In this document: positions 1 to 21,177 of the stretch, piece by piece
Layout of the letters: every line of letters begins with the position of its first letter
How positions within the stretch are numbered: position 1 is the stretch's first letter
Source of the DNA: an uncultured Clostridia bacterium
GTDB lineage: Bacteria > Bacillota > Clostridia > Christensenellales > UBA1242
Direction of reading: 5' to 3'
Assembly (NCBI GenBank): GCA_944349765.1
Contig: CALVNN010000010.1
Span: 1-34,778 of the forward strand
DNA: 34,778 nt
Program-made: the position numbers and the translations under genes
The notes under the pieces: generated by a model
Told to the model about the DNA's origin: nothing
What the model saw: the letters and a program-made list of their open reading frames with translations, nothing else
The model's database searches: none

Positions 1-1622
1 AGTAAGAGTCCAGGCTGACCATTTGTGCCTGTATAAGGTGTGGACTTAGCTGTATCTATATAGGCATTCTGTCCGTCTATGGTAAAATTATCAAAATTAT
101 AGGTAGATGTGTCATACCCCTCTTCATAGTCTAGTATTATCCATCTTACCGGCTCTATCAAGTAATAATTGCTATTGTATCGTACGTATCTATCGTCGGT
201 GGTATTGTTTTGGTATACAGTACAAGCGGTCGTCCCTATAGTAATTTGTTCACTAGTAGCAGTCACTTCACTTGCTGTAACACCAGCTAAGCTTTGAGGA
301 TACTCGCCCATATCTAAATAGTATTTACCAGCAAATATACCAGTAGTGTATTCACCATAATCAAATATACCATTCCAAAATTTTGCGTATATAGTTGTAT
401 CACTTGTTACTTGGTCATTAAAATCATACTTCGTGCTATAATACTCATCAGCGTACCAGTTTTTAAATATCAATCCATCTACGGTAGAGGTCGGCTCGGT
501 AGTAGGGGCTGATACTGTGCCACCTTCTAGGATTTTTACAGTCTCATATATTTCACCTTCACTCATAAATGTTACTGTGTATTGTCTTATAAATAATGCG
601 TACACATTTATATTCGTAGTAACTATAGTATCAAAGTTGTATTTTGTATCATAATTAGTGTCGGTATACCAACCTTGAAATACCATATTCGCTGATGTGG
701 ATACAGGGTCAATATCAGGAGCTGATACGCTAGTTCCTTTTTCAACAGTCACTGACTCATATACACTACCTTCACTCATAAATGTTACTGTACATACTTC
801 AACAAAGTCAGCATATAGAGTAAAGTTATGATCTATTACTGAATTAAAGTCGTAAGGCGTAGTAAGCCTAGAGTCGGTATACCAACCTGCGAAGTTGAAT
901 CCCAATTTAGTAGGTTCTGGGGGTTCGGTGACTTTCTGTCCTTCTGCAAAAAATGTCTGTGCTGGTACTGCTCCTGCATCACCTGTATCAAAGGCTACTA
1001 TATAGCCCATTACTGGTCTAGGTGTATAATTACTATTGAATAGTGTAGCTGTCTCCTCTAAGGTAGTCGTCGTTACATTCTTGGCGTTTATTGCCTGTAT
1101 TGTCACGTCCAGCTTTAGATCTAGTGGGGCTGGAGTGTCATTATTTATACACTTAGCTCCTTGATAAGTGATACCCTCACAGAAGGTATACCTTGTATTA
1201 TCTGTTATCTTTAGTGGTATACCATCTGGGTCGGTTAGATAATAATATCCATCTTCTGCTCTTACCCATTTGTATGAAGTACCCTCATATGTAGATATAT
1301 CGTCATAATTTATTGCTAGTAAAAATCTCTTATCCGCATCTGATAGACTTCCGTATTTGTAATAATGTAAATCAGCTCTAACAAATATGTCTTTACTATC
1401 GGTAGTTCGCTCTAAAGTAACACTATTTACTATAGTCTCTCCATTGACTACGTCTTGTAAATCTTCTACAAAATCTACATTCGTATTTAGTATTACTGGA
1501 TATACATCGACGTCGGTTGATCTTGTTATGCTTAAGGCACTAGCTAGTGTAATACCCAGCATCACTAATATACCAGCAAATACAAATGCTATATATGTAT
1601 TTCTTCTTTTGGTCTTTATCAT
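1..1622 (-). CDS. Partial surface protein with InlB-B-like repeats, C-terminus beyond left edge
   Basis: An open frame of 540 codons runs from ATG at 1622 to the window edge without a stop, so the C-terminus is missing. Residues 1-35 form a positively charged N-terminus plus a hydrophobic signal or anchor segment (about 11-30). Residues 36-200 are a beta-rich domain I do not recognise. Three repeats follow at about 204-273, 277-346 and 348-416. Each starts with a VTFMSEG- or VAF-type strand, has a central GW or NW-Y-(T/A)-D motif, and ends in YA-F; this is the Listeria-Bacteroides (InlB B) repeat pattern of Gram-positive surface proteins. After about residue 430, GEYPQSL and a PVRWIILD strand resemble the DUF6273-type domain often paired with such repeats. 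The Shine-Dalgarno is the purine run GGGGGGAAGGG directly upstream. Function is probably adhesion or cell-surface display (inference). Expression is probably controlled by the leader at 1645-1785. Confidence 0.85.
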   Translation of the reverse strand, partial: MIKTKRRNTYIAFVFAGILVMLGITLASALSITRSTDVDVYPVILNTNVDFVEDLQDVVNGETIVNSVTLERTTDSKDIFVRADLHYYKYGSLSDADKRFLLAINYDDISTYEGTSYKWVRAEDGYYYLTDPDGIPLKITDNTRYTFCEGITYQGAKCINNDTPAPLDLKLDVTIQAINAKNVTTTTLEETATLFNSNYTPRPVMGYIVAFDTGDAGAVPAQTFFAEGQKVTEPPEPTKLGFNFAGWYTDSRLTTPYDFNSVIDHNFTLYADFVEVCTVTFMSEGSVYESVTVEKGTSVSAPDIDPVSTSANMVFQGWYTDTNYDTKYNFDTIVTTNINVYALFIRQYTVTFMSEGEIYETVKILEGGTVSAPTTEPTSTVDGLIFKNWYADEYYSTKYDFNDQVTSDTTIYAKFWNGIFDYGEYTTGIFAGKYYLDMGEYPQSLAGVTASEVTATSEQITIGTTACTVYQNNTTDDRYVRYNSNYYLIEPVRWIILDYEEGYDTSTYNFDNFTIDGQNAYIDTAKSTPYTGTNGQPGLL

Positions 1623-1644: not shown

Positions 1645-1761
1645 AAAAAAGACATTTAGGGTATACTATCCTAATGTCTGTATGCAAAAAATATGCTATT
1701 TGCGCTGTCTATATTATTAATAGTCGAAAAGGTTGCCCCCATTATAATACTTTTTTGCATA
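1645..1761 (-). promoter_or_regulatory. Structured leader with intrinsic terminator (attenuator or riboswitch-like)
   Basis: On the minus strand an 11-nt segment (1761-1751, TATGCAAAAAA) is perfectly complementary to 1691-1681, enclosing 59 nt that include GGGGGCAACC. Immediately after it comes a hairpin with arms AGACATTAGG (1679-1670) and CCTAAATGTCT (1660-1650), with one bulged base, followed by a T run (1650-1645). The terminator lies between the promoter and the ATG at 1622, so transcription must read through it for the gene to be expressed. No known riboswitch class was recognised. Confidence 0.6.
1671..1760 (-). CDS. Possible leader peptide, 29 residues
   Basis: Within the leader of the surface protein gene, ATG at 1760 follows a GAGAGG Shine-Dalgarno by about 7 nt. 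It opens a 29-codon frame (start MQKSIIMGATFS) whose TAG stop (1673-1671) lies inside the 5' arm of the terminator hairpin at 1679-1650. Position and overlap suggest a regulatory leader ORF rather than a functional protein. There is no run of a single amino acid codon of the kind seen in classic amino-acid attenuators. It could be fortuitous. Confidence 0.35.
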   Translation of the reverse strand: MQKSIIMGATFSTINNIDSANSIFFAYRH

Positions 1762-1791
1762 TTTTCGCCTCTCTTTTAGAATAATATTTAT

Positions 1792-1820
1792 AGTATACCG
1801 AATATATAGTTTTTTGTCAA
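1792..1820 (-). promoter_or_regulatory. Promoter for the surface protein gene
   Basis: On the minus strand, TTGACA (1820-1815) is separated by exactly 17 bp from TATACT (1797-1792). Transcription would start near 1785, giving an unusually long leader of about 160 nt before the ATG at 1622. Confidence 0.75.
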
Positions 1821-1899
1821 ATACTTTACTTTATTTTGTGTGATTTTTTTAATTTTTATGCTTTAGTATTTACTTTAGGGCAACAACCTTTTGGCTTTA

Positions 1900-2157
1900 C
1901 CCTTCCGGGAGATTCTTCGGCAGAGCCTCAGGATGACAATGGCGTCTGTCGTTCTATACTAGGTCACACGCCATCACAACCGCCGTATTCCCTTCCGGGA
2001 GATTCTTCGCTTCGCACTAAAGTGCTGGCTCTGAATGACATTACCAAGGTCAAACGTTCTACAATTATTGTCATGCTGAGTCCGTGATAAATGGGTAAAT
2101 CTATTGTAATGTCATGTTGAGCGTAATGCAATGAAGTCGAAACATCCCCCGGAAGGG
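1900..2157. repeat. Composite inverted-repeat element, copy 1
   Basis: The element opens with CCCTTCCGGGAGATTCTTCG (1900-1919) and closes with the inverted CCCGGAAGGG (2148-2157). Inside are a second direct copy of the opening motif (1990-2009), each followed by CTCAGGATGACA or CTCTGAATGACA, and the reverse-oriented form TGTCATGTTGAGC...GTCGAAACATC (2110-2147). This palindromic intergenic sequence type (TTCGGC...CTCAGGATGACA) is widely dispersed in bacterial genomes (established, from memory). It is non-coding and MITE-like or a stable RNA-structure element (inference). Confidence 0.7.
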
Positions 2158-2680: not shown

Positions 2681-3715
2681 CTATCTACTTAGCTCTTCTT
2701 TTGACTTATCACAATTTGATACTAAATATTTGTCATTAATAAGTTTATCTAATTTACTATGTAGGTGGTCTATTTCATTATTATAATTACTTAGTAGAAA
2801 TTTGACATCCATTTGATATAATTTGGATTCAGTAGTATTTTGAAAAACAATATCATACTCCATAATACTTGGCTCTCTTACTACCCCGTGTAAACTATTG
2901 CCATATTGGTCAATGACATTATTGCTGATACAAACATTATCTTTATTAAATGATGCGTAGGTAAGGTTGCCATTTGTGTCATATACAAAGTGTTTTTGAT
3001 TATCCTTATCATAAAAACATTGGACATCGTATCCGTAAGCTGTAGGCTTGCTCTCATAATCACTTAGACCTAAGCAATGCATTAACTCATGAAGTATGAC
3101 TCTTGAAGCACTAGCTTGCATATGCGGATTGTATGCACCATCTTCAAAATACTTACCGTAAAGCTCCACAAACTGGTCAACATCAAGACGCATATTTGCC
3201 TTAGTATTTGCCTTGTAAAGGCCTGAAGCAATGACATTTTTAATTGACTTATCTGGCGTCACATCTGCTACTACTTCAATATCTTTTACGGTGACAGTGA
3301 TAGTAGCCGAATTCATAGAAGCATTGTCCTCGCCCTCTCTTTTGACAACGAAATTATATTCATCATTAACGGTATCAAATACTTTATTGATAAGGTCAAC
3401 ATTTTGTTTCAATAGATTGGCCACAAACTGAGGTATATCTTTTTGCACAACAATCTGACAATCCTGCCCTCTCTTAATAAAAAGGCGATTTTGCATTAAG
3501 CTTTTATTAGCGCCTATTTTGTCCGCCTGAAGCGTAACGGTAGAGTGATTTGGAAGGTCACAATATCTATTGTCTAACGCAGGGTTTGAGGATATAAACA
3601 TGTATCCTGCTAATAAATTGTAAGCCCCTAGCACGCCGATAGCACCCCAAAGGCACGCTTTTTTAAATTTTTTACTTGAATTACCTTTTAATCTTTTGGA
3701 TTTGCTCTTAGTCAT
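2681..3715 (-). CDS. Membrane-anchored metzincin-like zinc metalloprotease
   Basis: A 344-residue protein with a lysine-rich N-terminus and one hydrophobic segment (about 21-42), so it is anchored or secreted. The zinc site is at 209-219, HELMHCLGLSD, matching HExxHxxGxxD. The SIMEYD sequence at 283-288 fits the Met-turn (Met285) that defines metzincins. Asp219 in place of the usual third His resembles the snapalysin type (family knowledge). Residues about 45-200 form a variable prodomain-like part with several Cys, and the C-terminus (300-344) is helical and charged. It probably cleaves peptides or proteins outside the membrane. It has its own promoter (TTGACT-N17-TAAAAT at 3772-3744) and is divergent from typA. 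The family call rests on motifs only; substrate unknown. Confidence 0.75.
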   Translation of the reverse strand: MTKSKSKRLKGNSSKKFKKACLWGAIGVLGAYNLLAGYMFISSNPALDNRYCDLPNHSTVTLQADKIGANKSLMQNRLFIKRGQDCQIVVQKDIPQFVANLLKQNVDLINKVFDTVNDEYNFVVKREGEDNASMNSATITVTVKDIEVVADVTPDKSIKNVIASGLYKANTKANMRLDVDQFVELYGKYFEDGAYNPHMQASASRVILHELMHCLGLSDYESKPTAYGYDVQCFYDKDNQKHFVYDTNGNLTYASFNKDNVCISNNVIDQYGNSLHGVVREPSIMEYDIVFQNTTESKLYQMDVKFLLSNYNNEIDHLHSKLDKLINDKYLVSNCDKSKEELSR

Positions 3716-20814: not shown

Positions 20815-21177
20815 TGGTGGAAACGGCGGGAGTTGAACCCGCGTCCGCAAAATAACCTAATGCATCGTCTACAAGTTTAGCTATTTCTTGAAAAAATCAC
20901 TTACAACTTAGTCAAATAGCAAACGTTTATAAGCTATTCACTAATACTAAATCAAAACCCGTGAACCCTTAATGATTAGACCTTATCTATGTTTATGCCA
21001 CAGGGTACGCCGATAAGGTAAAACCTACCTAGTGACATAGCTACCAATTTTTTAAGCAGCAGCTAAAGTTAAATTTTTATTTTCTGCATTTATTTGCATT
21101 GTCGTCTTTCAAGGCAGTCGACCCTGCCTACTTGCAAAATACATTAAAATTATCACGTCGATACCAAATTCGTCCCC
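20815..21177 (-). ncRNA. ssrA: Transfer-messenger RNA (tmRNA)
   Basis: The 363-nt RNA has the tRNA-like ends of tmRNA. The 5' end GGGGAC pairs with GUUUCC next to the 3' ACCA, giving a G3-U pair, the alanine identity signal. A T-arm with GGGUUCAACUCCC lies at the 3' end. The tag reading frame ends in TAA at 21054-21052 and most likely starts at GCA (21087-21085), giving the tag AENKNLTLAAA; the last three residues are Ala, unlike the usual single L-A-A. It is transcribed right after smpB. Tag start is inferred from length and the preferred Ala start codon. Confidence 0.93.

What the first reader, a model, noticed from the sequence alone, without database searches (positions are those of the whole stretch)
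1645..1785. Attenuator or riboswitch-like leader before a surface protein
Between a clear promoter (1820-1792) and the ATG at 1622 the minus strand holds, in order, a possible 29-codon leader ORF with its own Shine-Dalgarno, an 11-bp long-range stem (1761-1751 with 1691-1681), and an intrinsic terminator (1679-1645) directly before the gene. The leader stop codon lies in the 5' arm of the terminator. This layout is what is expected for ligand- or translation-controlled readthrough, yet no known aptamer class was recognised.
Basis: partly seen in the sequence, partly recalled or inferred. Interest (0 to 1): 0.72.

Follow-up and report, generated by a model that had tools for sequence, protein, structure and literature searches.

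The report
Poly-G switch ahead of surface genes
In one unnamed bacterial genome, seven predicted surface-protein genes are each preceded by a short reading frame that ends inside a predicted transcription stop signal and, in six of the seven, holds a run of 4 to 11 Gs near its start, so that gain or loss of a G would likely stop the ribosome early and shut the surface gene off.

Summary
Confirmed, and not a one-off. The same genome (977 kb, unnamed, probably Clostridia) holds six more complete copies of this leader and one cut off by a contig end; every complete copy lies before a gene of one predicted surface-protein family. In all seven, start codon, G run (2-11 G, from ORF nt 18-26), U run and terminator-like hairpin follow in the same order; one phase of the leader frame ends inside the hairpin's 5' arm and the other two phases stop before it. 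The genome's only two G runs of 8 or more lie at this spot in two copies; one of these is out of frame as assembled. Best reading: a translation-coupled attenuator switched by poly-G slippage, working like the GCAGA-repeat leader of Streptococcus gallolyticus pil1 (PMC3894217). No known riboswitch. The window copy (5 G, in frame) is probably fixed ON. Termination, slippage and switching are inferred: no reads, strains or RNA data, and no copy found outside this genome.

The parts
1792..1820 (-). promoter, TTGACA-17 nt-TATACT
   Evidence: the same promoter stands before the other type-1 copies
1768..1773 (-). SD-like sequence of the leader ORF
   Evidence: sequence
1671..1760 (-). leader ORF, 29 codons
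   Evidence: frame kept in six of seven complete copies
1736..1740 (-). G run (5 G) at ORF nt 21-25; longer in other copies (11 G in C20, at least 10 in C26)
1751..1761 (-). 5' half of the long-range stem, over the leader start codon
1681..1691 (-). 3' half of the long-range stem, holding the U run 6 nt before the terminator arm
1645..1679 (-). predicted intrinsic terminator whose 5' arm holds the leader stop codon
   Evidence: not listed by the pattern scan
1..1622 (-). predicted surface-protein gene, runs off the contig; membrane anchor or signal segment, shared N-terminal domain, Listeria-Bacteroides (InlB B-type) repeats

Best explanation
The leader is likely a translation-coupled transcription attenuator that would be switched by gain or loss of G in a run near the start of its short reading frame, a frame that ends inside a predicted terminator just before a predicted surface-protein gene. 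Shown from sequence: promoter, SD, leader ORF, G run at ORF nt 18-26, U run, terminator-like hairpin with the leader stop in its 5' arm, then the gene; seven complete copies in one genome; early stops in the other two G-run phases. Inferred: in frame, the leading ribosome reads to the leader's end, covers the pre-terminator segment and the 5' arm, and RNA polymerase reads on (ON). Inferred: out of frame, the ribosome leaves after 22-61 nt, the pre-terminator segment pairs with the leader's SD or start and shuts out late ribosomes, the hairpin forms and transcription stops (OFF). The window copy (5 G, in frame) is predicted ON and nearly fixed; the C20 copy (11 G, out of frame) is predicted OFF and switchable.
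For: Seven complete leaders keep the same order of parts. The frame ends 5-18 nt inside the 5' arm in all seven, in C20 in another phase of the tract. The other two phases stop at ORF nt 22-61, before the arm at nt 71-184, in all seven. Only three G runs of 7 or more exist in 977 kb; the two of 8 or more are both at this spot of a leader, where base composition predicts 0.03 runs of 10 or more in the genome. C1b and C20 change freely in amino acids (pN = pS = 0.185, 54 codons) yet keep the frame. The pre-terminator segment is complementary to the SD or start region: sum of seven duplexes -86.2 against -54.2, sd 5.1, 0 of 500 shuffles as good. Poly-G is common in the family (74 of 98 genomes with runs of 9 or more, G000 included). 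The same logic is proven in S. gallolyticus pil1 (PMC3894217).
Against: No reads, strains or RNA were available, so tract variation, termination and translation are unproven. The window copy has only 5 G, C11 4 and C8 2, short for slippage (general knowledge). The C26 run is at a contig end and may be cut or be an artefact. No copy was found outside this genome. Copies are paralogs, so tests across them are not independent. Terminator covariation does not exceed shuffles. The pairing is not significant alone in C11, C8 and C1a (93, 69, 50 of 500), control windows upstream of C20 do as well in 22 of 340, and type-1 start regions pair as well with type-2 segments as with their own. The best full fold of C11 does not form the terminator hairpin. 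The window hairpin was not listed by the terminator scan.
Confidence: 0.6

Rival explanations
1. It is likely an attenuator answering a small molecule or antibiotic through ribosome arrest at the conserved end of the leader peptide (A/N-S/N-x-F-F/A/S just before the hairpin), and the G run does not matter.
For: The end of the leader is its most conserved part: identical over 21 residues in C1b and C20 while the rest changes, and alike across both leader types. It lies 1-2 codons before the 5' arm. Leaders that sense drugs exist, such as vmlR (search listing only).
Against: The two long G runs at the same spot are unexplained. The downstream genes are predicted surface proteins, not resistance genes. 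No run of one regulatory codon is seen. Conservation in type 1 is also at DNA level, so a U-rich RNA element would serve as well.
Confidence: 0.15
2. It is likely a fixed translation-coupled attenuator, like E. coli pyrBI, that follows growth state or UTP through the U run; the G runs are an accident of some copies.
For: The leader stop lies in the terminator arm and a U run lies 5-9 nt before it in all seven. Most copies have short G runs of 2 to 6.
Against: The genome's only two G runs of 8 or more are both in leaders, at the same place, and relatives use poly-G widely near surface genes.
Confidence: 0.16
3. The hairpin is just a terminator that insulates the gene, and the leader ORF is a chance open frame.
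For: Copies are paralogous and may simply have spread by duplication. The window leader alone folds only modestly better than shuffles, and a single frame of this length is open by chance in 1 to 24% of cases.
Against: The frame stays open despite length changes and free codon change, and the stop falls in the 5' arm in all seven. A terminator between a gene and its only visible promoter makes little sense unless it can be passed.
Confidence: 0.06

Closest known systems
Streptococcus gallolyticus pil1 and pil3 phase-variable leader-peptide attenuator (Danne et al. 2014, PMC3894217; abstract, passages and Discussion read)
   Same: A leader ORF with its own ribosome-binding site holds a repeat tract; repeat number sets the frame; a stop within or next to a stem-loop terminator goes with high transcription of surface genes, a stop 28 nt or more before it with mostly low expression.
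   Different: There GCAGA units, here a single-base G run near the leader's start; there two pilus loci, here seven complete leaders over one predicted surface-protein family; here a pre-terminator segment complementary to the leader's SD or start (I saw no such segment in what I read of the paper); there proven by mutants and RNA measurements, here only sequence.
E. coli pyrBI (PyrL) attenuator (recalled, not read here)
   Same: The leader ORF overlaps the terminator, and a U-rich stretch lies before it.
   Different: Downstream genes are predicted surface proteins, and leaders carry G runs.
Poly-G contingency genes of Neisseria, Campylobacter and Helicobacter (search listings only)
   Same: A G run in a reading frame, tied to surface functions.
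   Different: There the tract is typically in the main gene or its promoter; here it is in an upstream leader, so the switch would act on transcription through a terminator.

Membership tests
pil1-type phase-variable leader attenuator | leader ORF with RBS between promoter and a terminator ahead of surface genes | tested here: met
   seven complete leaders; RBS, terminator and surface role are predictions
pil1-type phase-variable leader attenuator | repeat tract inside the leader whose length sets where translation stops relative to the terminator | tested here: met
   for all seven by frame; a run of 4 or more G in six of seven
pil1-type phase-variable leader attenuator | GCAGA repeat unit | tested here: not met
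   the tract is a G run
pil1-type phase-variable leader attenuator | tract length varies within or between populations | tested here: inconclusive
   lengths differ among paralogs and contig C26 ends in its G run, but there are no reads or second strain
pil1-type phase-variable leader attenuator | translation of the leader raises downstream transcription | not testable with these tools
   needs a reporter or RNA data
pyrBI-type attenuator | leader ORF overlapping the terminator, with a U-rich stretch before it | tested here: met
   all seven
pyrBI-type attenuator | pyrimidine gene downstream | tested here: not met
   surface-type domains in the six downstream proteins scanned (the C8 protein was read, not scanned)
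trp/his-type attenuator | run of codons for one amino acid and a competing antiterminator | tested here: inconclusive
   no such codon run in the leaders; antiterminators not tested directly; the best full fold of C11 lacks the hairpin
known riboswitch or other Rfam leader | match to a curated family | tested here: not met
SipW-dependent surface proteins (downstream genes) | SipW-type signal peptide, TIGR04088 at its cut-off of 19 bits | tested here: inconclusive
   met for C20 (25.5) and C1b (22), just missed for C3 (17.7), not listed for C1a and C11 or the window protein

The most novel reading that the evidence does not exclude
One genome uses a shared poly-G-switched attenuator cassette as a regulon-wide phase-variation device: at least seven surface-protein genes each sit behind a leader whose frame is set at a G run and whose pre-terminator segment folds back onto the leader's own ribosome-binding site, so each gene is gated by a fast genetic switch plus a race between ribosome and polymerase, with a conserved leader-peptide end that may add a sensor.
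Probability: 0.3. Interest if true: 0.75.

Novelty: new variant of a known kind. Interest (0 to 1): 0.58.

Why it matters
Slippage tracts are usually sought in main genes and promoters. A tract in a tiny, unannotated leader ORF would act on transcription and be missed by gene-based scans. If true, the one mechanism described for S. gallolyticus pili would extend to a homopolymer, another bacterial lineage and a whole set of surface genes, and the segment complementary to the leader's ribosome-binding site would be a testable addition to how such attenuators avoid leaking.

Tried and rejected
Known riboswitch or leader: no Rfam match. Conservation in relatives: the DNA search matched 2 of 59 genomes, G000 itself and one promoter-like stretch in G013; the surface N-terminus at E <= 1e-15 matched only G000 of 309 family genomes; model R1 gave 65-81 bits at its own five sites in G000 and at most 30.7 bits elsewhere, with 64 of 307 genomes having some match at E <= 1, and the five best of the others looked like chance by eye; the type-2 core matched only G000 of 297. 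One search used a wrongly spaced pattern that missed even G000 and counts for nothing. Viral contigs: none. Genome contigs with the surface domain: none (records of this genome may be left out there). The C1b leader peptide was found only as itself among 5.8 billion proteins. Organism: of nine TypA matches the best is 68% identical, eight are labelled Clostridia, Clostridiales or Oscillospiraceae and one Elusimicrobia at 52%; no name can be given. Terminator covariation: not beyond shuffles. Selection on the whole leader peptide: pN equals pS between C1b and C20. Of 16 places within one mismatch of GCTAGCGTTTTT in G000 (reversed control 3) only the 3 exact ones were followed.

Literature: search listings only. 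PMC3894217: abstract, passages and Discussion. PMC11868660: searched for six terms; attenuation, leader peptide, gallolyticus and terminator do not occur in its text. In the listings of those five searches I saw no report of a G-run leader attenuator; nothing wider is claimed.

Full report
Observation. The repeat occurs in 9 of 1000 shuffles of its segment. The leader as one RNA is only modestly more stable than shuffles (z -1.5, 19 of 200 as good), and the hairpin was not listed by the terminator scan, so further evidence was needed.

Copies in the same genome. The window is contig C10 of a 977-kb genome in 30 contigs. A DNA search of that genome gave four further clear copies: C26 (cut off by the contig end), C11, C8 and C1a. 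The N-terminal domain of the downstream protein has 14 matches in the genome, the window's included. Reading upstream of all 14 gave four complete leaders of this type (C10, C11, C8, C1a) and three of a longer second type (C3, C1b, C20). The other seven genes have no such leader that I could see; one of them (C1:84001) has a similar promoter and a possible long-loop hairpin without a leader ORF. A model of leader end plus terminator finds in G000 the five sites it was built from. The exact word GCTAGCGTTTTT occurs three times, in the three type-2 leaders.

Anatomy. In all seven complete leaders the longest G run in the first 60 nt begins at ORF nt 18-26. Its length is 5 (C10), 4 (C11), 2 (C8), 6 (C1a), 5 (C3), 5 followed by C and another 5 (C1b) and 11 (C20). 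In six of seven the frame as assembled runs to a stop 5-18 nt inside the 5' arm of the hairpin; in C20 the frame behind the tract does so, but the start codon is out of frame with it. C11 is read from a GTG, chosen because it keeps the frame. In all seven the other two phases stop at nt 22-61, ahead of the arm at nt 71-184. A U run lies 5-9 nt before the arm in all seven. The seven hairpin pieces fold at -10.0 to -25.6 kcal/mol. Pair counts on five of the seven (C10, C11, C8, C1a, C3) give 88.7% paired, above all slid versions (at most 62.3%) but reached by 100 of 500 shuffles.

The G run. Only three runs of 7 or more G exist in the genome on either strand: 11 G in the C20 leader, at least 10 G at the end of contig C26 in a leader 97% identical to the window's over 93 nt, and 7 G inside an ordinary gene. 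With the window's base composition and independent bases one expects 6.6 runs of 7 or more and 0.03 of 10 or more. The window has 8 runs of 5 or more on both strands, the leader's among them.

Is the leader translated? Open frames of these lengths arise by chance with probability 0.013 to 0.24 per leader, product 3e-8 over the six in-frame leaders; the copies share ancestry and were picked for being open, so this overstates the case. C1b and C20 differ at 30 positions over 54 codons with pN = pS = 0.185: the peptide's body may change while the frame is kept. The stretch SQLNITSTTTNTICASVFSCK near the end is identical. That fits a frame whose job is to bring a ribosome to the hairpin, perhaps with a meaningful end.

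The long-range stem. In type-2 leaders the best partner of that segment is the SD region. Over seven leaders the summed duplex energy is -86.2 against -54.2, sd 5.1, for shuffles, 0 of 500 as good. Singly, C10, C3, C1b and C20 are reached by 2, 9, 0 and 7 of 500 shuffles, but C11, C8 and C1a by 93, 69 and 50. Control windows 60-400 nt upstream do as well in 0 of 340 cases for five leaders, 1 of 340 for C1a and 22 of 340 for C20. Specificity is one-sided: type-2 start regions pair poorly with type-1 segments, but type-1 regions such as C10's pair with type-2 segments as well as with their own. With the start region alone, 0 of 500 shuffles reach C1b and C20, but 36 to 267 reach the other five. 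In full folds the start-region pairing is present in C10, C8 and C1a; C3, C1b and C20 pair the SD region instead, and C11 does neither and does not form its terminator. The suggested role, closing the leader to late ribosomes, is inference.

Downstream genes. They share an N-terminal domain. The three type-2 genes match camelysin (Peptidase_M73) above its cut-off and carry BspA-type leucine-rich repeats; two of them pass the SipW signal model. The window gene and C1a carry Listeria-Bacteroides repeats and C11 both kinds. Surface location is inferred from these domains.

Relatives. No copy of the leader was found outside this genome, so conservation among species cannot be shown. Poly-G itself is common in the family: runs of 9 or more in 74 of 98 genomes, G000 included. 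Of the 30 loci fetched, a loose rule puts 19 in promoter spacers, 6 in frames of 100 or more codons and 5 elsewhere, G000's own leader among the 5; 11 of the 19 have 10 or more of 12 promoter matches. Runs of 8 or more soon after an SD and ATG occur in 51 of 307 genomes, G000 included; of 31 such tracts in 30 fetched loci, 25 open a frame of 100 or more codons in one phase and 6 do not. The 6 are G000's own leader, one without a usable ORF, one at a contig end, one with only short frames and two in L136 that look leader-like. So this family uses poly-G widely, and G000 places it in leaders.

Mechanism and standing. The best reading is phase-variable, translation-coupled attenuation. It works like S. 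gallolyticus pil1, where GCAGA repeats change the leader's length and a ribosome that reaches the terminator raises transcription, shown there by mutants and RNA measurements. The layout is met, the repeat unit is not, and population variation and translation dependence are untested here. For the window copy both closed phases stop 37 and 29 nt before the arm; in that system stops 28 nt or more before the terminator went with the mostly low, mixed profile. With 5 G the window copy is probably stable and ON. I class it as a new variant of a known kind.

Noticed in passing
L047-L068 (family genomes): Poly-G runs of 9 or more lie between -35-like and -10-like hexamers in relatives: 19 of 30 loci by a loose rule, 11 with at least 10 of 12 promoter matches. 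This looks like promoter-spacer phase variation across the family.
   Followed up: partly
L111-L115 (genus g3) and other loci: Poly-G runs of 8 or more soon after the start codon of long ORFs: 25 of 31 tracts open a frame of 100 or more codons in one phase, as expected for phase-variable main genes.
   Followed up: partly
L136, oriented nt 755 and 1528: Two short ORFs with 9-G runs just before small genes; the second ends overlapping the next start codon, which suggests a translation-coupled leader switch in another genus.
   Followed up: no
window 1890-2040 (-) and upstream of the C26 and C11 leaders: Interspersed repeat with the words GAAGAATCTCCCGGAAGGG or close variants.
   Followed up: no
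L020 (G000:C1:84001), upstream region: Same type of promoter before a related surface gene, but a long-loop inverted repeat in place of the leader ORF; possibly another kind of leader.
   Followed up: no
window 2681-3715 (-): ORF of 344 aa with only sub-threshold metallopeptidase-like matches, followed by a strong inverted repeat with T tail at 2570-2540.
   Followed up: no
window 20815-21177 (-): tmRNA gene with tag AENKNLTLAAA.
   Followed up: no
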